Shown: positions 50,052 to 63,915 of the stretch, piece after piece | Position numbering within the stretch: the stretch's first letter is position 1 | Layout: each line of letters begins with the position of its first letter | Assembly: GCA_910890315.1 (NCBI GenBank) | Contig: CAJVGD010000011.1 | Location: forward strand, 558,001-622,000 | Reading direction: 5' to 3' | DNA: 64,000 nucleotides | From: Serendipita indica DSM 11827 | Taxonomy: Eukaryota; Basidiomycota; Agaricomycetes; Sebacinales; Serendipitaceae | Program-made: the position numbers and the translations under genes | Notes under the pieces: generated by a model | Database searches by the model: none | What the model was told of the DNA's origin: nothing | What the model saw: the letters and a program-made list of their open reading frames with translations, nothing else

Positions 50052-50700
50052 CCCAAGTGTTTCAAAGAGCTGGGTTACTCCGTATTGCGAAGTCAACCGG
50101 TCCGTCGCTGACGACGTCGAGAGCAAGTTTGGGTGCTCACACAAGCCGCCGCTGAGATGCAGAATGTGTATAAAATCTGATTTTAATACTTGTATTATTC
50201 TCTTCTGCATTCCAGGAGGTTGGTTTGGGCGAGTTTGTCACTTGGTCCCCACCTATTTTTGCCAAATCTTCGCTAGCTTCGACATGGAAGCGGTTCGAGA
50301 CCGTCCTAAACCGTTTAACCACGCCAATGAAAGTCTGCGGAACGGAGAATCTTCATCTCTGAGGCGTTTGAGGGTGACGTTCAATTATCAACTCTGCGGA
50401 GATTCTCCATGATCATTTGAAAGTGGGCAAAAACGGCGAGTTACCATCAACTGCACTCAATCGCGTTCCTTCATGGATCGTCAATCACGTTCCGCGAAGC
50501 AAGGACTGTGTACTGGAGTATCTCCGCGCGTGGTACGCGTCCATACTACGAAGCAACCTCCACACCTGACCTTGTTCTAGTTCTTGAAACAAACCTTGCA
50601 CTATTTCTCGGCGAAAGAATTGCCGCTGGGCTATCGACCTCATGGCTTAAAAGGGGGGCCTCGCGTGTCTGTGACATCCCCCACGTTTTGGTAGTCCACA
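50052..50700. other. Divergent intergenic region GWT1 / esterase
   Basis: About 650 bp, no gene supported. The right end holds the esterase promoter: the CGG-N11-CCG site listed separately and a CTTAAAAGG stretch (50646-50654) as possible TATA box about 50 bp before the ATG. Confidence 0.5.
50609..50625 (+). promoter_or_regulatory. CGG-N11-CCG element upstream of the CE1-CBM1 esterase
   Basis: Exact CGG, 11-nt gap, CCG, 92 bp before the esterase ATG at 50701. The left flank TTGCACTATTTCT resembles the TTGCACTAACC before the 63398 site. Fits a binuclear Zn2Cys6 (Gal4-like) factor site; factor unknown. Confidence 0.5.
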
Positions 50701-52160
50701 ATGCTCCTCACAATTCTCCACGTGTTGGCCGCAACCGGGGTGGCGTTTGCTGCTCAGCAGCAGCTGGTCAAGGTCACAAATTTTGGGCCTAATCCTACAG
50801 GCGTTGGAATGTGTGAGTACTTTGAAATCGTATGAGCTTGACTGACGCGAGTAGACGTATACAAACCCAGTCGGCTTGCCAACCCTCCCCCTCTTCTCGT
50901 TGCTATGCACTATTGCGGTGGATCTGGCCCAGGGTATTTCTCTTGTAAGCCTTTCTTGTTGCCCGGCAAGCACCTGCTGACGGACGCTTAGACTCCAAGT
51001 ACGCCGACAAAGCGGATCAATACGGCTTTATCGTCATCTATCCAGATGCCCCTCGTAGTCCACAGTGCTTTGGTGCGTGGATCCTTCAGTAGATGCTCAG
51101 CTGACCGCTTTCCAGATGTCGCGAGTTCAGCAACGCTCACCCATGATGCTGGTGGTGACTCTCAAGGTATTGCATCCATGGTCAAGTACGCCATCAGCAA
51201 CTATGGCGTCGACGCATCTCGTGTCTTTGCGAGCGGCACTTCTTCTGGTGGAATGATGACCAACGTCATGATTGGATCCTACCGTGGGTTTGATCCCGCC
51301 AGAGAGGAATGCTGGCTAATAATGTGTTTGCGACAGCCGAGCTATTCGCCGCCGCCTCGTCTTATAGCGGTGTTCCATTCGCCTGTTTCCCCACCAAGAC
51401 CGAGACGGGTTGCGTCCAGGGTAACGTCGCGACTGTAGCCGCTTCGAAATGGGTAAGCTCTGCGCCTTCGTAAGGCACGAGTCTGATACCGATCGACAGG
51501 GTGATCTCGTGCGAGGTGCTGAGCCGGGTTACTCTGGACGGCGCCCAAAGATGACTGTTTGGCACGGAACGACGTGAGGCTTTCATCATCGAAGAACTCC
51601 AATCGCTCATTATACCTTGCAGCGATACGGTCGTGAACTATGTCAATTATGACGAGCAAATCAAGCAGTGGACAAATGTCTTTGGTATCAGTGCCACCGC
51701 GACGTCGACCTCTAACAATAATCCGCAATCTAACTATATCAAGCGGGTGTATGGAAACGGCGAGGTGATTGGCTATACGGCCACTGGCGTCGGGCACGTC
51801 GTGCCACTTCACGAGGACATTGAACTAGCATGGTATGGAATCACTGGACAGACGAACACTCAGACAAATGGTCCAACATCATCTGGTCCATCGTCCTCCA
51901 CACCAGGAAGCACTTGGACGCCGCCACCCACGACCACGTCATCGTCGCCCCGCGCTGGTCAGACGCTCTATGGTGCGTTAAAAGATCCTTGTTTATAGCT
52001 CACTACTGACAATACAAAGGCCAGTGCGGAGGTCAAAATTGGACTGGGCCTACCACTTGCTCGCAAGGGACGTGCAAGTACTCCAATCGTAAGTCGTTTC
52101 TATTATATTTATGCACATACTAAGACCTTTCCAGCCTGGTACAGCCAGTGTTTGAACTAG
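50701..52160 (+). CDS. CE1-type esterase (acetyl-xylan/feruloyl esterase, PHB-depolymerase family) with C-terminal CBM1
   Basis: 361 aa from nine exons, 50701-50812, 50855-50944, 50992-51072, 51116-51283, 51337-51452, 51500-51573, 51623-51972, 52020-52088 and 52135-52160, all in phase. Signal peptide [17 protein letters not shown]. Catalytic Ser in [11 protein letters not shown] (GxSxG), Asp in [18 protein letters not shown] and His in [11 protein letters not shown] give the triad of carbohydrate esterase family 1. A Thr/Ser/Pro linker ([19 protein letters not shown]) leads to CBM1: [34 protein letters not shown] with its four Cys. It removes acetyl or feruloyl groups from xylan while anchored to cellulose; secreted. 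The CBM core is a separate 69-nt exon, flanked by phase-1 introns on both sides. Confidence 0.92.
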
Positions 52161-53428
52161 ACGTGGCGACAGTGAATGCAATTGTTATATTATTATACCC
52201 AGTACTCTTTCTCCTTTAGAGGCTTGAAATGTTTGCCTGGCATATTGTCAAAAGGGCTCGATGCATAACTAGGAATTTGACGGAGTTATCGAGGACGATA
52301 AAGCGCTCACTCCAATAACAGCCGTCTTTGAGGAGGTGGGTTCGCGTCGCACCCAGAGGAGAAATTTTCCAAACCCAAAAAGATTTTAGCAGTGGATACT
52401 TGTAAACTCTTTCTTTGTGTTCTTTTTCAATCCAGGGTCCCTCAAAGTGGCCAGCGACCATCCAGCCGTCGCCTCGAACTTTGCCGGGCTGGCGCCAACG
52501 AGAGGTAGACTCTGGAGCGAGACAGACGCGGAGACCGAAGCGATAATAAACGAGTGGAAAGTAATAAAGCACGAAATATTTCATCTTCGACGCATAGTGG
52601 AGCAGATCACAAAAGTGTGCGTTGTCAACAATGTACCACGAGAGCCAGCACAATATGGTTTCCTGTATTCTGCCTTCCTTTTCCTCACAAAAAGCCGCAG
52701 TCGTCGAGCTGTTCCACAACTCTCAGTCAATAATCACATTTCTTTTTCCGCCGGCAAACGCTGCAGCCATGTTTCCTATTTACCCCATTGTGGTCCTTCG
52801 TATCTTCAGCTGGGTCGTTTCCATCCCGACTTCTCGACCAAATATAGATAATGCTCTAGCCATTGCATTAAATACAGGCTTGTCGGACTTAACGCAATAT
52901 GGCTAATGGAACGCATAGAATCTCTAGAGCAACACTCATGCATGGTGCGGTCAATCCTCGTCCAAATTCTGGAAGTTCTCCGGAATTATGAGGTAGTTGC
53001 CCTTGCAGGATAACGAGGAAGACAATGATGACCTTCCACATATGTCGATATCATAGATCCGCCGATGTACGGAAAGAGGCCGCAGAATTGACGTGAAGAG
53101 GGTGAGTGCAATTTGCGACGTTGTTGATTCGGTACAGACCCTGCTAGTAGACCTGTAGAGTCATTATCCCTGATATGGTGAGAAGAGTCACGGGCTAAGC
53201 GTCGCATTCGTACGCTAATCCCGATTTTCTACCATCCCTATAGATTCTCAGGTACTATGTCCGATCCTCTCTCGACTATATCCGCCCGTGAACTGTGTCA
53301 TGTCACGTTCTACAACAGATTCTACGCCAACTTCGGTAGACTTAACTTGTATTTGATATTCCTTGATGGGGTGTGGCTGCACAAAAGGGCCTTCCAACAG
53401 CTAATTACCGCTTTCGTTTGTGTTTCCG
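52161..53428. other. 1.27-kb intergenic stretch, no gene supported
   Basis: Open frames up to about 167 codons (52216-52719 minus, 52417-52851 plus) overlap in opposite directions and lack domains or signal peptides. It contains the promoter of the next CBM1 gene. Confidence 0.45.
53334..53350 (+). promoter_or_regulatory. Degenerate CGG-N11 element upstream of the repeat-linker CBM1 gene
   Basis: Left half conserved (CGCCAACTTCGG), right triplet reads TGT instead of CCG. It lies 95 bp before the ATG at 53429, the same place as in the other CBM1 genes. Confidence 0.3.
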
Positions 53429-53993
53429 ATGCATCTCGTAACCATACTCACCTTGGCTCTGAGCAGTGTCGCGCTCGGTGCTGTCACTGATCCCGGAGGG
53501 TATCCAAACCCTACAACCTCCAGAACGACGATGATTGTCACTGGTCCAGGAGGTTATCCGAATCCTACAGCCTCCAAGACGACAACTATCGTTACGGAGC
53601 CAGGAGGCTATCCAAACCCAACAACTTCTAAGACGACAACTATCGTTACGGACGGGGGAGGATATCCTCCTCGTAGTACCACCACAACGACCTCCAAGAC
53701 AACGACCATTGTGACAGATCCTGGGGGATATCCTAATCCTACCACTTCGAAGCCAATTTCCACCACTGTGTCTGCACCTCGCACTGGCCAGACACTCTAT
53801 GGTGCGTCAATGTTGGCTTGTGTAAAGTTCGCTTCTGACATTAAGAAGGTCAGTGTGGAGGTCAAGGTTGGAATGGACCTACTATCTGTGCTCAGGGCAC
53901 CTGCAAGTACTCCGATCGTGAGCCGTCATCGTGCATGACTAGCGTCCCTTGACTCACGTTTCCGAAGCCTGGTATAGTCAATGTCTGAATTAG
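53429..53993 (+). CDS. Secreted repeat-linker protein with C-terminal CBM1
   Basis: 155 aa from exons 53429-53801, 53849-53917 and 53968-53993, in phase. Signal peptide [17 protein letters not shown], then a linker built from imperfect copies of (D/E/G)[17 protein letters not shown], then CBM1: [34 protein letters not shown], four Cys and the aromatic cellulose-binding face. There is no catalytic domain. The CBM exon is again exactly 69 nt between phase-1 introns, and the [10 protein letters not shown] lead-in nearly repeats the esterase's [10 protein letters not shown], so its 3' end was probably copied from the esterase or from a common source. Role: cell-wall binding, perhaps an effector-like or adhesive protein (inference). 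Confidence 0.85.
53488..53752 (+). repeat. In-frame tandem repeat coding the [17 protein letters not shown] unit
   Basis: Four full units of about 57 nt plus one altered unit ([21 protein letters not shown]). Units differ mainly at the first residues and third codon bases. O-glycosylation of the many Thr is likely. The same words (TPTIVTDPYPP, IVTDPC-GYPNPTT) recur in the linkers at 57934 and 59394. Confidence 0.85.
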
Positions 53994-54869
53994 AAGTTGA
54001 ATGTGAATATACAAAGTATCCGTTACTCTCACCACCTACTAGGCCCGAGTTGCGCACTAGTACTCAGTCAAAATGACCGAGTCAGCGACATGAATTCCAC
54101 CTTGGAACTTCCCAACCAACTTGATTATTCGCCAGACTTTGAAAGCTTGTTACTGATCCGTTGGACGGACGCACTAATAGATTTCAAATCTCTAAAGACT
54201 ACTTTATCATGTGTATTATGTCACTTCCTGAGTAATAAATCGAGATCAAGTACCGAAGCCAACGAGTTCCAGAGTTTCTCTCCTTGTAATGCATCCAGTT
54301 ACTATCGGAGCGCTTAATTAGGTCGATCACTGGTTGCAGGACTACGTGAAGTAAGTGGTTGCTCGAATCGTCTTGGACTAAGCTCCCATTCAGAGTCTTG
54401 ACCAGCGTATTACTGGGACCTCCATATGTGGGTAGAAGTTTAGCGTCGGATCCATGCAAACGAGTGCATGCCTTAACAAAACTTGGTTCACTCGTTTGTA
54501 TGCACACGGGAGAGTCTATACAGAGGAATTGAGGGATGTAGTATTACTACATATGATCAGGCTCGGTTGGTTCTGTACGCCTCCTTTGGACATCTACTGG
54601 AGATCTTGTTGCCAATCGCTTATCCTCGCATTCATGAACTCTCTGGGGCCATCTGCTGAAGGTGATATATCTCCTCAGGGATCCATTGAGCGCGACCGCG
54701 GGGAAGTTGTTGCGGGAACTGCGCAGCTTACCAATTCAACGCAATCAAAGGGACCTGAAGTGCTGAAAAAACATGCACGTAGCTCATTTGTGGAACAGAC
54801 GCCGGTAGTTTTCATGCTAGAATGCGATAGAGATCATTCAGCTCACATAGTCGCTGTTTCTGCAGATAC
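53994..54869. other. Intergenic plus unresolved 5' part of transporter gene
   Basis: About 880 bp. A plus frame (54634-54945, MNSLGPSAEGDIS ...) may give the cytosolic N-terminus of the next gene, but no splice of correct phase joins it to the first membrane helix. Confidence 0.35.
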
Positions 54870-56370
54870 GAGGGGGCTCTCCTTTTCAACCTTTGTGCAT
54901 TCATCCTTCCTGCTCTCTATGCAACACTCAGCAAGTTCTGGGTAGCCAATATCGACTCGAGCCTTGTCGTCACGACAGACATCTACACCTACATTGGCGT
55001 AATCGTTGAAGTGATCAACGAAGGCCTCCCTCGAGCATCATGGCTCATTATTGGAGATAAATCTTCAAGGCCTCTCGCAACCAGGATCCAATTAGCCTAC
55101 ACACTCATCTCAATCCAAATGCTTCTTGGAACCCTTCTCTCCATCGTCTTTCTCACATCATCCTCCCTACTTGCAGGATTCTTCGTCCCTGCGGTGGTAC
55201 GAGCAACGTCCTTGCGATACGTTCGCATTTCCTCCTTTTCGGCCCTTGCATCGACTACCGAATATAGTGTCTCCCTAGCGACCCGAGCCTTGGACCGTCC
55301 AGATGTCCCACTACTCATTAGCTCGGTTAAGTTTGCGATCAATATCGTCCTCGATCTCATCTTTATATCAAAGATTCACGTTCGTGGCGTGATTCCAAAC
55401 GTCAATGCGCAAGCCGCGATTCGACTGAGTTGCGATCTAGCTGCAGCCTTTTCCGGTCTCGTATACTTTGTTTCACGCAACAAACGCCTGGGAGGCACAA
55501 TGAGGGGAGAAACTCAGGAGCACAGTACGACGCCTTCATTGCCCGCTCTCAAGGTTCTTGCCTACCCCGGCACTTTCACCTTTATAGAGTCTGCAGTCAG
55601 AAACGCTCTATACCTGTGGCTCATCCACAGCATGATAGAGTTGAGTGCAGACTATGCTACTGCCTGGGGTGTATTCAATACCATCCGGTGGGGCCTTGTC
55701 ATGGTACCGGTACTCGCTCTTGAATCATCAAGCCTGGCTTTCGTTGGCCATAAATGGGGCGCTTGGAGAGCCAGAGTCGGCCTGAACACCTCTCCCATGA
55801 CGGTGGCAAAGAAGGAGCTTTTCGGTCAGTAGATTGCTGAGGTATATATCTCTTTAAATTTGCTCTTAGGTATTATTCTACCTGCCTTGGTGTCTGTGGG
55901 TATTGCCTTGCTCGTTGAGGTTCCTCTTTGCATCTTTTTTTCCCTATGGGGTGCACAATCCTTCGCATTCTACCTCTCTGGATCAACATCAGTCGCTGCA
56001 ATCGCAGGAAACATGTGGAGAGTACGTCTAATAATGCCTTTCCCCTGCTCTGATCTCCCATTAGACCATTGACTGGTGTTACATCTTTTATGCCATATCG
56101 ACGCAGCTCGCCACAATTCTACTCGCAACCATTCCGAGATGGTACCTCTACCAGAGCCTAGCTTCCAACGTCCTCTGGGTTCTGCCGTGGGCGATTGTGG
56201 TCAGTAAAGCGAACCTTACCGTGGAAAATGCTTGGCGTTATCATTCGATTGTCTTTGGGGGGAGCTTGGTCGTCAGCTTCATCGTAGTCGTCCTCTTTGA
56301 CTGCATATGGGCCTGGAAACTTCTCAGTGGACGCCTACGTCTGGCTCCCGTTGCGTCAATTGACGTATAA
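54870..56370 (+). CDS. Probable MATE-type multi-pass transporter (5' end unresolved)
   Basis: Exons 54870(or upstream)-55824, 55870-56021 and 56065-56370 join in phase and code about 470 residues. Hydrophobic spans run through the whole length, beginning [24 protein letters not shown] and including [41 protein letters not shown]-like, [36 protein letters not shown] and [20 protein letters not shown], about eleven to twelve in all. The [17 protein letters not shown] segment in the first loop is, from memory, a MATE-family feature. A drug or sugar-conjugate exporter is possible; family confidence is moderate. It stands in the middle of the CBM1 gene array, and part of its third-last region recurs, decayed, at 56749-56903. 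Confidence 0.55.
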
Positions 56371-56589
56371 CTGCCTAAGTAACTCAACAATGACCATTGA
56401 TTCCATTGCGAATATATGCACAATTTTCGCTTTTCTAAAATACATATGGCTGCTTCTTCATGCTACGACCTCGGTTCGAGACTCAGGTCCGAAGGAAAAG
56501 TGTTTCATAGTCAAACCAGAGTTGGCGCATTTTATACCTACTGCTGAGAAGACTCTCATAGTCACGACTAATAAATCATCCTCAGGGAG

Positions 56590-56680
56590 ACCCGGATTAC
56601 CGGATATAACGCCTGTAGCATTTCCGAAACCAGTACCCTGCTCGGGAAGCTGCCACTCGGAATGTTGCAGGGACTTTTCG
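56590..56680 (+). repeat. Intergenic repeat block, copy 1 of 3
   Basis: Core pattern CCGGAT-ATAACGCCTGTAGCATTTC-GAAACCAG ... GGAAGCTGCCACTCGGAATGTTGCAG. It aligns by eye to the other two copies with substitutions and short gaps. Not coding. Confidence 0.6.
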
Positions 56681-56748
56681 ATCTCGGTAACTTTGTTAAT
56701 AATCCTTCTAAGTAGTAGAGTATCGATCTACCTACCTCAATGCATTTC

Positions 56749-56903
56749 TATTAGGTGCCGTTTCACAAACGCTGACATTGCCTCACTCGTCGAAGTAATC
56801 CTTCGCATCTTCTTCTTCATATATGGCGCACAATTTTTCGCATTCTATCACTCTAACCGCCGCTCGTATCGCGGACCGACAGACATTGAGGGTGCGCCCT
56901 TAT
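56749..56903 (+). pseudogene. Decayed fragment of a second transporter copy
   Basis: The frame reads ADIASLVEVILRIFFFIYGAQFFAFYHSN, aligning to [30 protein letters not shown] of the gene at 54870-56370 (LVEV, IFF, GAQ, FAFY in register). It is preceded by an acceptor-like CTATTAG as in the intact gene. Flanking exons of that gene are not recognisable, so only one exon's worth survives. Confidence 0.65.
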
Positions 56904-57284
56904 GACGCGTTACCTTCCCTCCTTCCCCAACTTCTATTCAAATATCTTTTAAGTCATTATAATGTAGCATGTGACTCTAATCACTGCGATTTTACGCTGG
57001 TATGTCCATCAGAGACAGCCTCGTGTTACACCGACCAACGTATAACTGTTCTATAGGTTTTGAATTGAGCCAGATACTATCTCAAGCCGCAATATCAAGG
57101 TATCTACATCAGTTAAACTTTGCATCAATGATAAAATTCTTCCTCCGTGCCCCAATCTTTATTCGTCGAAAGAGGACGAGCGCTTTGCTATTTGAACAGC
57201 AGCTCGGGCCTGACTTGTCCAGCGTTTACTGCCAAATGCCTCCGTACCCATTGCTCAATATCCTCGGGGTGCGCTAACGATGAC

Positions 57285-57370
57285 CGACTTGCTGGATTTA
57301 GCGCCTGTAGTGCTTCGGAAACGAATCAAGTCATAACGAAGCTCCCAGTCTGAATGTTGCGGTGATTCCT
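57285..57370 (+). repeat. Intergenic repeat block, copy 2 of 3
   Basis: Core GCTGGATTTAGCGCCTGTAG ... CTTCGGAAACGAA ... GAAGCTCCCAGTCTGAATGTTGC, continuing into TCCTCGTATG-like sequence shared with copy 3. Confidence 0.6.
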
Positions 57371-57828
57371 CGTATGTCAGAGGTAGATTGTCCCGAATCG
57401 TTTAGTTGTAAGGCAAGTGTCGGCATATCTGAACCCCTGTTGGCAACCAAACTGAGAGCCACCTCGTAGTTTCGACTTATATGTCCAGCCAGCCCGAGTC
57501 GTGATCGCTGGATGTTCAGAGCTGGAAGTCAGTAATGCGCATCGCTTGACCTACCTTATGCGGCCCCTGCGAACCTTCATTTGAATGAGTACATATATAT
57601 TACCCAGCTTCTCGGCTTTTTGTCGTTATGAGATTGCATGGTGGCGGCTCACACGTTCGAACCGTATCATCTCGGCCAGCCAGATACTAACGCTCAGCGA
57701 AGGGTTTAGGAGCCCTTGTAGTGCCAAGAAATCATTCAAGAATATCGCCGCCGGCTCACTTGCGCTCCATGGGACTCAGGCCACAGGTATCAATTATCGA
57801 CTTCGCCAAACACTTCCTGCACTAACCT

Positions 57829-57845
57829 CGGGCAAAATTATCCCG
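57829..57845 (+). promoter_or_regulatory. CGG-N11-CCG element upstream of CBM1 gene 1
   Basis: CGG, GCAAAATTATC, CCG, preceded by CTGCACTAACCT; 105 bp before the ATG at 57934 and 28 bp before TATAAAA (57874-57880). Five of the eleven inner bases differ from the 59282 site, yet both triplets are kept. Confidence 0.6.
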
Positions 57846-57933
57846 TGATCGCAGATCTACAGAGGTATATAGCTATAAAAAGAGGTCTCATCGATCGCTC
57901 TCACTCCAGTCTTAACGCGCCTTCTGGTTCAGC

Positions 57934-58324
57934 ATGCGGCTCTTCACCACCTCGCTCTACGCTCTCGCTCTCGCGGGTACCGCAGCGGCTTGTACGACAA
58001 CATCCACGACACCGACAATAGTTACGGATCCCTATCCACCTCGCTCGAGCACTAGCTCAACCAAGGTGACGACAATCATTGTGACCGATCCTACTCCATC
58101 CAAATCAACAACTACGACCTCTACAAAGTCTGGCTACAGTAAGCTTTGGTATCAATGTGGTGGCTTTCAGTGGCCTGGCCCGTTCGCTTGTTCCGAAGGT
58201 GTATGCACATATCTGAACGGTATTCCTTCTCCATCTAGTTGAATTGGTTGCTTATATTCTTGTAGCCTGGTTCAGCCAGTGTCTCCCAGAAAACTACTTC
58301 AGTACCACGACAAGTGCGCCATGA
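57934..58324 (+). CDS. Small secreted CBM1-only protein 1
   Basis: 114 aa from exons 57934-58219 and 58266-58324. Signal peptide MRLFTTSLYALALAGTAAAC, Thr/Ser/Pro linker (TIVTDPYPPRSSTSSTKVTTIIVTDP), then CBM1: KLWYQCGGFQWPGPFACSEGVCTYLNAWFSQCL with four Cys, and a short tail PENYFSTTTSAP. There is no catalytic domain. The single phase-1 intron splits the CBM just before the last loop (N/AWFSQC), as in all six genes. The first ~90 nt are nearly identical to gene 2 (59394), so that pair is a recent duplication. Likely binds cellulose on the plant wall, or the fungus's own surface glycans; exact role unknown. Confidence 0.88.
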
Positions 58325-59281
58325 TTGCAATGGAGTACCACGATGCGCAACGCTCAACCAATTCCTTACTAGTTATCATGAATATCGAGATCAATTCCAA
58401 CTGATAAAGCGTAAATTCTTCACTCTGACCTCATTCGCTCCTTACTGCGAGTGAAATGACCCTTGCCAAGACGTGGCGCCCGTATTCATCAAAGAAGACC
58501 TAAGAATATATGCATACCACTTGTTTGTTCCCTCCGTCTCCTCCATTGGGATCTCTTGGCTAAAAGAGAATTTCACTATTTCAAAGGCAGATATATATAT
58601 ATCTCACCACGGTGCGTGTCCACATACACCCACAGAGAATTAGGGATAACCAATGTGCCGGACTTAACACCCGTAGCGCTTCAGGAACCAATATCCTCTT
58701 CAGGAAGTTGACACTCGAAATGTTGCAGCCCTCGCGGTCAATCCTCGTATATTGGAGGCAGGTTGCACCGGATCATGATACTTGTCGGGCCGCAATTGTA
58801 CTAGCAAGACACATATTGACAGATCTGAAACTCTACAGGAGCCCAAATCAAAGGTCACCTCGAGGCCAAAGGGAATGGGTGTCGAGGGGGCATCAGATAT
58901 TGTTGGAATTAATTTACTTAGTCCTGCCAATTTCTTCTGAATCAGCATGCATCGGTTGCCAACTTTTTCCGCAGTTCGCAGTGCTGATAGCTGTTATTGC
59001 GTTTGACCGTCAACAAAAACTGGGGGGAGTTCTCATCGTCAAATTATGTGACATTTGTGTCCAATGCCTCTGTTAAAAATACGCAAATACCGCACCTGTA
59101 GTGTATCTCGACCAACGCAACCTGAGTAGCGACGCTCGGCGGAGGGACGTGGTAAACATTCCAATGCCAAGGGAGTACACATTCTTATCTCCGTTCATTA
59201 ATGCGCTCAAACCAGGTTGCTATAAAAGCTCGGGTCATAGCTGTCAAACTCGACTTCTCCAAACACTTCTTGCGCTAACTT
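58325..59281. other. Spacer between CBM1 genes 1 and 2
   Basis: About 960 bp. It holds repeat block copy 3 (58650-58780). Plus frames at 58463-58711 and 58612-59076 run through the repeat and show no domain. Confidence 0.45.
58650..58780 (+). repeat. Intergenic repeat block, copy 3 of 3
   Basis: Core GCCGGACTTAACACCCGTAG ... GCTTCAGGAACCAATA ... GGAAGTTGACACTCGAAATG and onward to TCCTCGTATATTGGAGGCAG, the last part shared with copy 2. Confidence 0.6.
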
Positions 59282-59298
59282 CGGCCAAAAGAGCCCCG
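59282..59298 (+). promoter_or_regulatory. CGG-N11-CCG element upstream of CBM1 gene 2
   Basis: CGG, CCAAAAGAGCC, CCG, preceded by CTTGCGCTAACTT; 112 bp before the ATG at 59394. An AAATAAAAGG stretch lies about 37 bp downstream as TATA-like box. Confidence 0.6.
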
Positions 59299-59393
59299 TG
59301 CTGATATGTCCGCATGTCACTCTCGCCATAAAGTAAATAAAAGGAGACCACAGTGACTAACCTCATTCCCCAAGCAGTCGTCTCTGGTTCAGC

Positions 59394-59778
59394 ATGCGCC
59401 TCTTCACCACCTCACTTTACGCTCTCGCTCTCGCGGGTACCGCAGCGGCTTGTACGACATCATCCACGACACCGACAATTGTTACGGATCCTTACCCACC
59501 TCGGTCCACCACCACCAGCTCGACCAAATCGATTATCTTGACCGACCCGTGTGGATATCCTAACCCAACTACATGCTTATCCTCGACGACCTCTACAAGG
59601 TCAGGATATTCTAAGCTGTGGCAACAGTGCGGGGGTATTGGATGGACTGGGCCCATCGCTTGTTCTGAAGGTGTATGCACGTATCTGAATGGTATTTCCT
59701 CAAATTCTAGCCATCCCCTCTCCTCACGATATTATAGCCTGGTTCAGTCAGTGTCTTCCGGCAACCACCTCCAGTTAA
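59394..59778 (+). CDS. Small secreted CBM1-only protein 2
   Basis: 112 aa from exons 59394-59691 and 59738-59778. Signal peptide MRLFTTSLYALALAGTAAAC, linker [41 protein letters not shown], then CBM1: [39 protein letters not shown], four Cys in the module. The linker adds two further Cys (DPC, TTC) absent from its near-twin at 57934, which could form an extra bridge. It carries one copy of the GYPNPTT word of the 53429 repeat protein. Secreted; cellulose binding inferred from the CBM. Confidence 0.88.
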
Positions 59779-60943
59779 AGACCTTTGTCGCGATAACTCT
59801 GAAATTCAATGTAAAAAAGATACACAACCCAAACGAGTCTATGCGGATTCATGATTTGAGATCAAATGCAAACTGAGAGATCGTTATATTGATTTGCTAA
59901 AACCTTTGTAAAAGGGGGAACATCTTTTCTGTTTGGTGCCGGCATCGAGGATACAAATAGTTATGCCTGCCGGTCGATGGACGCCCTCCAATTGGCGAGA
60001 TCACACTGAATTGAGCCCGCCCCAAGAGCAAGAACTTCGCGGGTTTGCGCAGGCTTTCACAAATCATAATAATTCCTGATCCATCTCTGATATGATATTT
60101 ATTCTGCCAGCAGCATAGTCATCATCACACGCACAATTTTCTCTCAACCGACCTAAGAATCGGACATACTTGACCAGTAAATTGTTTGCTTACGCTACTC
60201 TGTCTTCGTGCCGAAACACGCTTGCTTCAGCATTGGCGGACGCCAAGTCTCATTGACCAGTCTCGCCTTCCTACGGTTCCGTCATGCTTGCAAATAACTG
60301 GAGGCGGCTGGGATGATGTTCAACCCAGTTCCGGTACCGCTTCGTAAATGAATGAATTGAACAGGGAAGTCGCTCCGGAGATATAGACAATTCTGCGGGC
60401 ATTCTTCGTCTATTAAAGACCGGTCGTCCCACATTGTGACACCTACCGGCCCGCTAGTACTGTCCAAAGGTGTCGGGTATCTACATATTTGATCCTATAT
60501 GAAAGGCTGAGGTATATTTCGCTCGTAGGCTCGACTAAACGTGAGTTCAGCGATGTTGAGCTTGAATAGCCCCAAAATACCACGTATTTCAGGTTGGATT
60601 CACAACATTAATTATGTTCGCTCTGCTATTATTGACGAGTACGGGGCTGTCTTGTTTTTGGCGAGTGTCTCTGAACCGGTGGGGTCTCAACATTGATTGG
60701 ATGTCTGAAAAATCATCTGACCAGCTCGTTACATATTTAATATGTCATCTTTTTTCGTTCAACGCGCGCATATGTCGGAGCCTCGCTCTCCGTGCTTGTG
60801 ATCTACAGACCATAGTGCGGGCAAGTCCCTAGTTTGTCAAGGTATCGTTGAACAGTATTTCCGCTCGTGGCACATGCTCGAATTACGAAGCGCTATAAGT
60901 CGGGCCACTGCTGTCAATCATCGACTTTCCCCAAACACAACCT
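59779..60943. other. Spacer between CBM1 genes 2 and 3
   Basis: About 1.17 kb with no supported gene. Short frames only (for example 60614-60832, which looks like random hydrophobic coding). Confidence 0.45.
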
Positions 60944-60960
60944 CGGTCAAAAGAGCCCCG
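60944..60960 (+). promoter_or_regulatory. CGG-N11-CCG element upstream of CBM1 gene 3
   Basis: CGG, TCAAAAGAGCC, CCG, preceded by CCCCAAACACAACCT; 118 bp before the ATG at 61062 and 37 bp before TATAAAG (60998-61004). Confidence 0.6.
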
Positions 60961-61061
60961 TGGTTAGCAATCAATAAAGAACCAGAGTGTGGAGTGATAT
61001 AAAGAGTGGGTCACCTCAGAGACTTATTGGAGCCCCAAGCCTTCAAAGCCCCGGAACCGAC

Positions 61062-61444
61062 ATGCGCCTTTCTGTTGCTACCCTCTATGCCCTCGCCTTT
61101 GCGGGAACTTCAGTGGCTTATACCACCCCGAAAAAGTCGTCTACGTCATCTCGCTCTAGCACTAGCTCAGTAAAGTCGACGATCGTGACCAGCCCAGGCG
61201 GGTATCCCTACCCGCCTTCATCATCAACGACCTCTACAGTCACAGGCCTCAGCCCAGTTTGGGGACAATGCGGGGGAAGAGGGTTCATGGGGCCGACTGC
61301 CTGTGCTGGAAGCATCTGTGTATACTATAATGGTATTTCCTTCTTCCTTTGGCTCCTTTACCTCCTCCTAACGACAATCTAGTCTGGTTTAGTCAGTGTC
61401 TCCCAGCAGATGTTGCCAGCACAATCACAGTCTCTAAGCCTTGA
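61062..61444 (+). CDS. Small secreted CBM1-only protein 3
   Basis: 110 aa from exons 61062-61332 and 61383-61444. Signal peptide MRLSVATLYALAFAGTSVAY, linker TTPKKSSTSSRSSTSSVKSTIVTSPGGYPYPPSSST, CBM1 [33 protein letters not shown] and tail PADVASTITVSKP. Four Cys. The TTPKKSSTSSRSSTS stretch is almost identical in gene 4 (63501), making a second recent pair. The aromatic residue at the first binding position is Trp (VWGQC). Confidence 0.87.
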
Positions 61445-63397
61445 GACTGGCAAGCCCACGTCTACTGCGATAAAGAAGGATAGGTCGGGCTTGGATGACT
61501 GTCGATATTGAATACTTGAATTTCAGTGGTGCCGCTTCCTCTTTCCAAGTAAAATGAGCAGCATGCGGAAGTCACCATACTATTGCGACCGTGGTCCATC
61601 TGATTTAGTTTGCAAAGCACAGAATGAGCAAAGGGGAGACGAATTCTGTCTCATTAGAAAACCAATGCATTAAATGTCGAAAACGCGGGATTTGAAGTGG
61701 TGGAAAAAGAGACTTGGTGTAGGCCCAAGGCTATATACACCAATATAATATGATATATTTCAATTTGAGCCTACAGCCTTGCGGTTCATTATTGTGCGAG
61801 CTATCGTTACTCTTCCTTTTTTTATAATCTAGCTTTTCAAATGCTGGAAGATTTGCTCTCAGGAGCTTTCGGACACCAGAACTTGATATATGTGCGCCTT
61901 ATTGGAAGAAGATCCGGTCATACTGGTACGCCAGAGTAAACCAATTGCTCAGTGCTCTCGGAGAAGGTCTGACGATGACCGGGGCCTGGCGCTTGTAACG
62001 CCACAGGCGTGAACCAGCCGATCATCAAACGACTTTCCCACATTGCACGCTCTGCGGTCTTTCGTCGCATGTAAGAGCTTTAGTGTCCGTAATTTTCACA
62101 CTTCTCAGAGCGTTTTGCGAAGTGTAGTAGCGGATAGGACCGACTCTTCATGGGAAACTGAACTAACCCCAGTCACGTTCAAGGGTGGTCACTTTGCGGC
62201 TGCTAAAGTTTGCTGAATCGATGTTTAACGGGTTCTAGCTTAGCATATATGGAGCATGCACCTTCTTAATCACTTGCGAGCATCTCACAAGGCATTCCAT
62301 TTTACTACTATCGACGTGCAAACGTCCGGACCCTGCTTTCAATACTGATGGTTCGCGGATAGCTCGTATACGTCAGTCTTGTAGACACACACTCGCTGGT
62401 ATCTCCGTTCGGGATAAATGTCGAGCTATCTGGAGCCTGGCTGTGTGCCTCACGCACGTGTGATTTTGAACAAAAGGTACATGATTGAAGGAAAAGTTGA
62501 AAGTAGCCCAAGGGTTAATATATGATATCATAGTCGCGCATCGCCGAACTCGTAGTAGACCTGGATCTGCCCTTACGATCCTTTATCACATCACGACAGA
62601 GATACATCAGTATTCCACGCTGGTATTGTCAAGCTGCGGACACCCGAAACTGAAATACATATTGGTCGCGCTGCCTTGCTCACCGGTCCGTCGAGATGTC
62701 CCTTCAGCTATATACTTCTCGGCGAGGGCTTGACGATGACCGAATTGAGGCACTCGGACTGTAACGGTGTGAAAATGAGTCGATTAAGTAAGGAAGTTGC
62801 TTCTGGGAATGATGTAGAGATCTGCGGCCATTTCTCATCTGTCAGGGGACTTTTACCCCGGATCTTGGCACCTATCAGTTCAATAGAGTACATATTTTCG
62901 GGTCTTACTCTTTTGGCAAGCTGAATCGAGTCCCAGCTCCGGCGCTCGACAGATAGATGGTGGGTATACATGCATTGAGTTGCGAATTTGATAGGACTTG
63001 ACCCATACCAATCTTCGCCTTCCACAGGCTACGAATCGACTCACCATGCATGTAAAATACATCCTCTCCACTATTTGCGAGTTCGAGATGGCCCCATCCT
63101 GGAGCGACTCGTTTCCAGATTTCTGGATCAACGGTGGCGAGACCTTAAGCTCGTATGATCAGTTTATTGCACATAGAACCTCGGAAATCCATCACGAGAT
63201 ACCGTTCAATAGGTGCATATTTCCGATGCTTGCTCGCAATGCTGATGCTCCGCCGATGGTTCAGGTAGGTCATTTCTTTGTTAGCGTATTGTTCAGTAGT
63301 ATTTCCGGTCTGGGCATGTGTTCCTATTCCGAAGCCTTGCGAGACCCGGGCTGCCTGTCAATATTCAACTTCTCTCATACACTGCTTGCACTAACCT
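61445..63397. other. Spacer between CBM1 genes 3 and 4
   Basis: About 1.95 kb with no supported gene. Frames at 62485-62733, 62708-63025 and 62998-63471 overlap and lack domains. Words such as GACGATGACCG recur near 61971 and 62734 and in repeat copy 2 (57280), hinting at more decayed copies of the intergenic block. Confidence 0.45.
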
Positions 63398-63414
63398 CGG
63401 CCAAAAGAACCCCA
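63398..63414 (+). promoter_or_regulatory. CGG-N11-CCA (one-base variant) element upstream of CBM1 gene 4
   Basis: CGG, CCAAAAGAACC, CCA, preceded by GCTTGCACTAACCT; 103 bp before the ATG at 63501 and 36 bp before TATAAAA (63451-63457). One base away from the full palindrome. Confidence 0.5.
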
Positions 63415-63500
63415 TGGTCAGTAGTCTGTGACAGCTGTATTCTCTCAAGATATAAAATGAGGTCTCAGTGATCACCCACCCAGGAGCTCCAGAACTCGGA

Positions 63501-63915
63501 ATGCGCCTCTTTACCGTCGCTCTCTACGTCCTCAGTCTCACGGCTGTATCAGTGGCTTATACCACCCCGAAAAAGTCTTCGACGTCATCTCGCTCTAGCA
63601 CTAGCCCAGTAAAGCCGACGACCGTGTATCCTTCCCCGACAACATCAACGTCAACGTCAACATCAACGCCAAAGGCAACATCTACATCCACAGTATCTGG
63701 GGCCACTTCCTTGTGGGGACAATGCGGGGGAATTGGGTTTACAGGGCCCCATGTGTGCTCCGAGGGCGTCTGCACATTTTTAAATGGTACTCCTCCTTCT
63801 GGTCTCTTCTCTTTCTCATGATATTCTAGATTGGTTCAGCGTGTGTCTTCCGGCAGCAATGGCCAGTTCCCAAACAAGCTCCAGCTCCAGTTCCAGCTCG
63901 AAGCCTTATTGGTAA
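63501..63915 (+). CDS. Small secreted CBM1-only protein 4
   Basis: 123 aa from exons 63501-63786 and 63830-63915. Signal peptide MRLFTVALYVLSLTAVSVAY, linker TTPKKSSTSSRSSTSPVKPTTVYPSPTTSTSTSTSTPKATSTSTV, CBM1 [33 protein letters not shown] and a Ser-rich tail ending SSKPYW. Four Cys. The usual WYSQC Gln is Val here (WFSVC); that Gln normally helps contact the glucan chain, so binding may be weaker or altered. Linker dinucleotide-like (ST)n coding is prone to length change. Confidence 0.87.

What the first reader, a model, noticed from the sequence alone, without database searches (positions are those of the whole stretch)
50609..63414. Shared Gal4-type CGG-N11-CCG element before all CBM1 genes
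In six CBM1-bearing genes a CGG lies 92-118 bp before the ATG, preceded by a CTAAC(C/T)T-like word in most. After exactly 11 nt comes CCG in four cases (50609, 57829, 59282, 60944), CCA in one (63398) and TGT in one (53334). At 57829 and 50609 five or six of the inner 11 bases differ from the 59282 copy while both triplets are intact, which is what selection on a Zn2Cys6 dimer site would leave. The esterase gene shares the element although its coding region is otherwise unrelated to the short CBM1 genes. This suggests a cell-wall regulon with its own activator.
Basis: partly seen in the sequence, partly recalled or inferred. Interest (0 to 1): 0.8.

Follow-up and report, generated by a model that had tools for sequence, protein, structure and literature searches.

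The report
Inherited promoter island, not Gal4 regulon
A row of neighbouring cellulose-binding-protein genes in the root fungus Serendipita indica shares a stretch of promoter that came along with gene duplication and was probably kept by selection, but it is not a general switch for cellulose genes, many of which in this genome carry a different, differently spaced CGG pair.

Summary
The letters are as reported: CGG 92-118 bp before six ATGs, then CCG in four, CCA in one, TGT in one. The Gal4/regulon reading mostly fails. (1) CGG-N11-CCG is not over-represented in window or genome and lies within 200 bp of 1 of 32 other CBM1/AA9/GH7 genes, as chance gives. (2) A 22-nt core occurs genome-wide (at most 1 mismatch) only before the tandem genes S2-S5. 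(3) Conserved there is a ~60-bp island (36 of 51 ungapped columns invariant; 114 of 497 elsewhere upstream) while fourfold sites are 33-70% diverged: probably a selected cis-element, but its two triplets are not kept better than the rest (5/6 against 31/45, P = 0.42). (4) The esterase promoter aligns with S5's over ~110 bp and its CBM1 end matches S1's, so descent explains that sharing; S1's promoter is only marginally similar. (5) Other CBM1 and LPMO promoters here instead carry direct CGG-N8-CGG (15 of 32; 9 of 20 families against 0.9 expected; 0 of 66 controls); the six genes lack it. The organism is Serendipita indica. No expression or binding data were available.

The parts
50509..50619 (+). 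Esterase (CE1) promoter stretch that aligns with S5's promoter (63290-63409); holds CGG 50609 and TAT-N2-CCG 50519
   Evidence: local alignment score 49, 0 of 200 shuffles reach it
50609..50625 (+). CGG-N11-CCG before the esterase gene (reported element)
   Evidence: letters
50701..52160 (+). Gene CE1: signal peptide + acetylxylan-esterase-like domain (PF10503 in its records) + C-terminal CBM1, 361 aa, 9 exons
   Evidence: hand-made model, no transcript; homologues
53334..53350 (+). CGG-N11-TGT before S1 (second half-site absent)
   Evidence: letters; marginal similarity
53429..53993 (+). Gene S1: signal peptide + repeats like [17 protein letters not shown] + CBM1
   Evidence: hand-made model; CBM1 end 73% identical in DNA to CE1's (D4)
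57788..57849 (+). Conserved promoter island of S2 (CGG 57829)
   Evidence: alignment; coordinates
57934..58324 (+). Gene S2: signal peptide, S/T-rich stretch, CBM1
   Evidence: hand-made model (stop read); public model SIIN_4375_T lacks the CBM1 core
59242..59302 (+). Conserved promoter island of S3 (CGG 59282)
   Evidence: alignment; coordinates
59394..59778 (+). Gene S3: signal peptide, S/T-rich stretch, CBM1
   Evidence: hand-made model; nearest record PIIN_06067 of Serendipita indica, 98% over 89%
60912..60964 (+). Conserved promoter island of S4 (CGG 60944), 10 nt missing between its two halves
   Evidence: alignment; coordinates
61062..61444 (+). Gene S4: signal peptide, S/T-rich stretch, CBM1
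   Evidence: hand-made model (stop read)
63356..63418 (+). Conserved promoter island of S5 (CGG 63398, CCA in place of CCG)
   Evidence: alignment; coordinates
63501..63915 (+). Gene S5: signal peptide, S/T-rich stretch, CBM1
   Evidence: hand-made model (stop read)
57874..57881 (+). TATA box of S2, downstream of the island; equivalents 60998 (S4), 63451 (S5), weaker 59338 (S3), A-rich words only at 50648 (CE1) and 53382 (S1). S3 also has TATAAAAG at 59221, upstream of its island
57743..57750 (+). TAT-N2-CCG, the only spaced word (3+N0-11+3) found in all six promoters (-230 to -1); also at 50519, 53256/53277, 59186 (and 59305), 60856, 63300

Best explanation
The shared element is part of an ancestral promoter spread by local duplication. 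The esterase-CBM1 gene and the short CBM1 genes are neighbours related by descent, and S2-S5 are old tandem duplicates that took their upstream DNA along. Inside that otherwise scrambled upstream DNA a ~60-bp island has been kept, most likely by selection. Inferred mechanism: the island is the array's own upstream activating sequence, bound by sequence-specific factor(s) on two modules, TCRACTT-N3/4-CAWACAC and AACYTCGG-N-CAAAA-N4-CCC-R-TG; in S4 exactly 10 nt (about one helical turn) are missing between them. It is not a CGG-N11-CCG Gal4/CLR-2 site marking CBM1 or cellulase genes; that role in this genome fits a direct CGG-N8-CGG better. Shown: the island, its restriction to the array, the esterase-S5 promoter similarity. 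Inferred: selection rather than conversion, factor binding, activation, which factor, and the order of duplications.
For: Island columns 36 of 51 invariant in S2-S5 against 114 of 497 ungapped columns elsewhere upstream, Fisher P = 1.4e-11. The 40-column window over the island has 80-89% identity in all six gene pairs, 45-61% in the next window downstream; among the other upstream windows only two pair-windows reach 78% (S2-S4, 15 columns; S2-S5 near the TATA, 27 columns). Fourfold-degenerate sites of the same genes differ at 13/40 to 26/37. Core pattern, at most 1 mismatch, genome-wide: 4 places, all S2-S5; at most 3 mismatches 37 against 30 for the backwards control. The S2-S5 profile finds nothing in 30 other held loci of ~3 kb, 28 of them CBM1 loci. 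Intergenic repeats D5 and D8 recur through the array. CE1-S5 promoter alignment ~110 bp, 0 of 200 shuffles. CE1 and S1 share the CBM1 end (D4).
Against: No expression or binding data. Only four sequences define the island, and its bounds were set on the alignment that shows it. High-identity tracts in coding DNA (S2/S3 92%, S4/S5 94%) show that short-tract gene conversion may happen in this array and could homogenise promoters too. The profile of S2-S5 does not find CE1 or S1; CE1 is clearly similar to S5 but not to S2 or S1 (45 and 46 of 200 shuffles) and S1 to none at the element. S3 has a TATAAAAG upstream of its island, so there the island could lie near or after the start site. Sister-species promoters could not be read.
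Confidence: 0.68

Rival explanations
1. One reading: a Zn2Cys6 homodimer (Gal4/CLR-2 type) binds CGG-N11-CCG and drives these CBM1 genes as a regulon.
For: CGG present in all six and CCG intact in four. CGGN11CCG is given as the CLR-2 site for Chaetomium thermophilum cellulase genes, citing Neurospora work (PMC12911045, passages). 4 of 6 promoters against about 0.035 expected per 200 bp from the genome rate.
Against: Three of the four hits are homologous copies and the fourth lies in a related promoter. Triplets are not preferentially conserved (P = 0.42). S5 has CCA and S1 has TGT. In 1 of 32 other CBM1 and cellulase promoters, 4 of 66 control upstreams. Genome-wide below its backwards control.
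Confidence: 0.15
2. Pure inheritance: the block is similar only because the genes were duplicated and homogenised by gene conversion; it has no function.
For: Tandem array with inherited intergenic repeats and short conversion-like tracts in coding DNA.
Against: The island stays at 80-89% in all six pairs while flanks and fourfold sites are strongly diverged. Conversion would have to hit the same ~60 bp in every pair. Its 3' edge is sharp, right after CCC-R-TG.
Confidence: 0.14
3. Chance: the esterase and S1 matches are coincidences picked out by eye.
For: The 30-nt motif gives P = 0.62 (CE1) and 0.39 (S1); a CGG 85-125 bp before the ATG is present in 10 of 24 other CBM1 promoters. The S2-S5 profile misses both.
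Against: For CE1 the gapped alignment is non-random (0 of 980 background stretches; 0 of 200 shuffles against S5). For S1 chance remains open (P = 0.018).
Confidence: 0.08

Closest known systems
CLR-2 (Gal4-like) site CGG-N11-CCG of ascomycete cellulase genes (PMC12911045, passages)
   Same: Same two triplets and spacing in four of the six genes; genes with cellulose-binding modules
   Different: Here confined to one gene neighbourhood, imperfect in two of six, triplets not specially conserved, in 1 of 32 other CBM1/AA9/GH7 promoters examined
AmyR site CGG-N8-(C/A)GG, and the Ace3/Roc1 cellulase activators, whose Zn cluster is described as highly conserved with AmyR's (PMC4943734 and PMC12997857, passages)
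   Same: 15 of 32 other CBM1/AA9/GH7 promoters of this genome carry direct CGG-N8-CGG
   Different: None of the six genes of the finding carries it within 800 bp upstream
Lectin-like CBM1 proteins of Piriformospora (Serendipita) indica (14 of 67 CBM1 proteins lack other domains; PMC3192844, passages)
   Same: S1-S5 have this make-up by their models: signal peptide, small, CBM1 only
   Different: The passages seen do not mention a promoter element or this array

Membership tests
Zn2Cys6 (Gal4/CLR-2 type) binding site, CGG-N11-CCG | Both triplets intact at 11-nt spacing | tested here: not met
   met in 4 of 6 (CE1, S2, S3, S4); CCA in S5, TGT in S1
Zn2Cys6 (Gal4/CLR-2 type) binding site, CGG-N11-CCG | Triplets conserved above the spacer and flanks | tested here: inconclusive
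   5 of 6 triplet columns against 31 of 45 other island columns, P = 0.42; no sign of it, but four sequences give low power
Zn2Cys6 (Gal4/CLR-2 type) binding site, CGG-N11-CCG | Bound by a Zn2Cys6 protein in vitro or in vivo | not testable with these tools
   no binding data
CBM1/cell-wall regulon marked by this element | Enriched before CBM1/CAZyme genes genome-wide | tested here: not met
   0 of 24 other CBM1 promoters; 1 of 32 with AA9/GH7 added, 1 of 20 families, 0.76 expected; core pattern at most 1 mismatch only at S2-S5. The sample is 24 genes, not all CBM1 genes
CBM1/cell-wall regulon marked by this element | Co-expression of the six genes | not testable with these tools
Conserved cis-regulatory island of a tandem gene array | Slower divergence than flanks and synonymous sites in all pairs | tested here: met
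   (S2-S5)
Conserved cis-regulatory island of a tandem gene array | Lies upstream of the core promoter (TATA) | tested here: inconclusive
   TATA-like words 39-56 bp downstream of the CGG in all six, good in S2, S4, S5; weak in CE1 and S1; S3 also has TATAAAAG upstream of the island; no start-site data
AmyR/Ace3-type direct repeat CGG-N8-CGG | Present in the six promoters | tested here: not met
   0 of 6 within 800 bp

The most novel reading that the evidence does not exclude
S1-S5 are a Serendipita indica-specific set of secreted CBM1 lectin-like proteins. They were born when a copy of the neighbouring acetylxylan esterase gene lost its catalytic domain but kept promoter, signal peptide and CBM1, and they then multiplied. 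A private two-module ~60-bp promoter island, inherited from the esterase, puts them under a separate control (for instance early root colonisation) from the enzyme genes, which run on CGG-N8-CGG.
Probability: 0.3. Interest if true: 0.55.

Novelty: new member of a known kind. Interest (0 to 1): 0.36.

Why it matters
It separates two promoter classes in a model root endophyte. Many CBM1 enzyme and LPMO genes share a direct CGG-N8-CGG repeat, a concrete, testable candidate for the Ace3/Roc1 site in Sebacinales. An array of non-enzymatic CBM1 proteins, with few relatives found elsewhere, carries a different conserved island. If the two classes respond to different cues, that would show how symbiosis-related wall-binding proteins are uncoupled from wall degradation. 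It also corrects a tempting reading: repeated promoter words in a tandem array are descent first, regulon second.

Tried and rejected
Considered and set aside: (1) 5'-UTR intron end (CTAAC as branch point): TATA-like words lie downstream of the element in all six; for S3, with a second TATAAAAG upstream of the island, it is less sure. (2) Repeat-element origin: the core pattern occurs only at four array genes genome-wide at 1 mismatch. (3) The two other exact CTAACYTCGGN11CCR places (C5:44467, C27:69826): no match to the island profile; their genes were not identified. (4) Near hits beside other CBM1 matches, not followed up: C13:1036979 (1 mismatch) lies ~570 bp downstream of the CBM1 match at C13:1036349-1036408; C2:1893310 (3 mismatches) lies ~2.2 kb upstream of the CBM1 match at C2:1891042-1891107. 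(5) Other CGG/CCG arrangements: spacers 0-20 in three orientations scanned; direct N8 stands out; inverted N7 (7 of 32; 4 of 20 families against 0.47) is in 6 of 7 promoters the same site read one base off. (7) Paper search by guessed locus tags PIIN_06063-06068: 0 papers; topical searches: nothing on this promoter in the titles and abstract starts listed. The Roc1 paper of Schizophyllum and the Neurospora CLR-2 target paper are not held, so Roc1's motif was not read.

Selection of rows: 30 CBM1 loci were fetched of 74 matches. Two lie in the window. Of the other 28, 22 gave a start directly and L056's gene was used through L094; L040, L041, L044, L045 and L051 were dropped for want of a recognisable start or of upstream DNA; L095 was added. 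Total 24, starts chosen by me from signal-peptide-like ATGs. L043 has only 178 bp upstream. The loci reach 1.5 kb either side of the match, so genes starting further away are missed. The eight AA9/GH7 promoters (seven AA9, one GH7) were chosen for a well-placed first exon and are not all such genes. CGG-N8-CGG was noticed on the 24, so its P value is post hoc, multiplied by the 63 arrangements tested: 5.6e-6. The eight later promoters are the held-out part: 4 of 8, 3 of 6 families (one of these families, L097/L098, was joined to L052, which lacks the repeat). Families were collapsed by my own score cut-off. The 66 controls are upstreams of signal-peptide-like ATGs in held DNA, not verified genes. 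The six promoters are partly homologous, so comparison with unrelated sextets overstates surprise. In one search the positions printed for the CGG-N8-AGG variant are wrong by an offset and were not used.
Full report
What was checked. The window is C11:558001-622000 of a 24.7-Mb genome in 55 contigs. The protein search names the organism: S3 matches PIIN_06067 of Serendipita indica DSM 11827 at 98% over 89% of its length, and S2's own record (SIIN_4375_T, P0122) has a contig of 990,683 bases, the length of C11. Taxonomy: Sebacinales, Agaricomycetes. No relatives of this genome are held, so sister-species promoters could not be compared.

Observation. The bare pattern CGG-N11-CCG is no rarity: 12 in the window against 14.8 expected, 4365 in the genome against 5498 for the backwards control. 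The longer word CTAACYTCGG-N11-CCR occurs exactly five times in the genome, three of them here; with up to 2 mismatches it is rarer than its backwards control (579+608 against 959+1067). So there is no genome-wide excess. The striking thing is local.

The local thing is a promoter island. Aligning the upstream DNA and genes of S2-S5, one stretch stands out: the 40-column window over the element has 80-89% identity in all six pairs, the next windows 45-61% (downstream) and 50-70% (upstream). Two other upstream pair-windows also reach 78% or more, each in one pair only (S2-S4 over 15 columns; S2-S5 over 27 columns near the TATA). Over the 63 columns of the island 36 of 51 ungapped columns are invariant, against 99 of 424 further upstream and 15 of 73 between island and ATG (P = 1.4e-11); the best other 63-column window has 20. 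Fourfold-degenerate sites in the same genes differ at 21/57, 17/35, 20/34, 26/37, 19/31 and 13/40. The duplications are thus old and the island has been kept. It ends abruptly after CCC-R-TG. S4 lacks 10 nt between the module ending AAACAC and the module starting AACYTCGG, about one helical turn, which would leave both on the same face of the DNA (inference). TATA-like words lie 39-56 bp downstream of the CGG in all six, good ones in S2, S4 and S5, only A-rich words in CE1 and S1; S3 has a further TATAAAAG upstream of its island. For most of the genes the island thus sits where an upstream activating sequence would.

The triplets are not special. Within the island, 5 of 6 triplet columns are invariant against 31 of 45 others (P = 0.42); the inner CAAAA and the flanking AAC and TG are as constant as CGG, and the last G of CCG is not. 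The argument that inner bases vary while triplets stay fixed is not borne out by the alignment, though with four sequences the power is low.

Who shares it. The 22-nt core with at most one mismatch occurs at S2-S5 only (the pattern was written from these four). A BLAST search with S3's promoter and start finds only itself and S2. The island profile, built from S2-S5, finds those four in the window and neither CE1 nor S1, and nothing in 30 other held loci. The esterase (CE1) shares it only in a longer gapped alignment: 0 of 980 background stretches score as high, and its promoter matches S5's over about 110 bp, 50509-50619 against 63290-63409 (0 of 200 shuffles), with weaker or no support against S4, S3, S2 and S1 (4, 9, 45, 46 of 200). 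S1 is marginal (P = 0.018; 130, 154, 135 of 200 against S3, S4, S5, and 10 of 200 against S2 at a place far from the element). A search for spaced words (3 + N0-11 + 3) in the six promoters returned exactly one in all six, TAT-N2-CCG, at -152 to -208; CGG-N11-CCG is not one. Sextets drawn from 21 unrelated promoters gave at least one shared word in 1 of 300 draws; TAT-N2-CCG is in 1 of 32 other promoters.

The genes are related. CE1 (361 aa, nine exons in my model) is an acetylxylan-esterase-like protein with a C-terminal CBM1; apart from an identical unnamed record, the best homologue is an S. indica protein at 64%, whose gene is L095 and whose promoter lacks the element. A 165-nt stretch over CE1's CBM1 end is 73% identical to S1's, the last two introns lie at the same places and both end in WYSQCLN. 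S2-S5 keep the second of these introns. S3 has three homologues in the protein database at E 1e-3: two S. indica records and one called endoglucanase (that search sees only relatives sharing exact 5-residue words). The simplest history is a copy of the esterase gene that lost its enzyme part (S1) and tandem multiplication of such short genes; the direction is inferred. S1-S5 would be among the 14 lectin-like CBM1 proteins counted for this species (PMC3192844, passages seen). That paper reports some lectin-like proteins (LysM, WSC or CBM1) induced in living roots; whether these five are among them was not visible.

The regulon test. I took 24 other CBM1 genes whose signal-peptide start could be recognised and, in a small later fetch, seven AA9 and one GH7 promoters. 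CGG-N11-CCG lies within 200 bp of 1 of these 32 (1 of 20 families; 0.76 expected); the GH7 gene has one at -221. A different arrangement is strongly over-represented: direct CGG-N8-CGG, either strand, in 15 of 32 promoters, 9 of 20 families against 0.91 expected from 174,976 background bases, the first site 110-156 bp before the ATG in 12 of the 15; P = 8.9e-8, 5.6e-6 after correction for 63 arrangements; 0 of 66 control upstreams of signal-peptide-like ATGs carry it, 4 of 66 carry CGG-N11-CCG. In the eight promoters fetched after it was noticed it is in 4; the single GH7 lacks it. Genome-wide it is not enriched (3781+3708 against 5805+5880 backwards). None of the six genes of the finding has it within 800 bp. 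CGG-N8-CGG is the AmyR site (PMC4943734, passages), and the Zn cluster of the Ace3/Roc1 cellulase activators is described as highly conserved with AmyR's (PMC12997857, passages). That Ace3/Roc1 reads this repeat in S. indica is inference.

Regulator. Sixteen Zn2Cys6 domain matches are found in the genome (a lower bound), none in the window; the only one on the contig is at C11:761569. A linked dedicated activator has no support; an unlinked one is open.

Verdict. Real letters, a real and probably functional shared promoter island, but confined to one duplicated neighbourhood and not shown to be a Gal4-type site. The regulon claim in its stated form fails; a different CGG pair marks many of the CBM1 and LPMO genes of this fungus.

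Noticed in passing
L031, L032, L034, L035, L036, L038, L039, L046, L047, L060, L094, L097, L098, L100, L102 (upstream of CBM1/AA9 genes): Direct repeat CGG-N8-CGG in 15 of 32 CBM1/AA9/GH7 promoters (9 of 20 families, 0.91 expected), 0 of 66 control upstreams: candidate Ace3/Roc1-type cellulase site.
   Followed up: partly
window 57923-58052 with 59383-59512; 61110-61187 with 63549-63626: Short high-identity tracts (92%, 94%) inside otherwise diverged paralogues: looks like local gene conversion.
   Followed up: partly
window 61956-62094 and 62717-62864: Between S4 and S5 the intergenic repeats (D8, D16) occur twice without a CBM1 match between them; perhaps a lost array member.
   Followed up: no
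window 57934-58324 and 59394-59778: Public gene models look wrong: SIIN_4375_T (P0122) lacks the CBM1 core of S2, and PIIN_06067 (P0121) reads on through the intron of S3.
   Followed up: partly
window 50519, 53256/53277, 57743, 59186, 60856, 63300: TAT-N2-CCG is the only spaced word found in all six promoters; function unknown.
   Followed up: partly
G000 C13:1036979 and C2:1893310 (no locus held): Weak copies of the element (1 and 3 mismatches) near other CBM1 matches, one ~570 bp downstream, one ~2.2 kb upstream.
   Followed up: no
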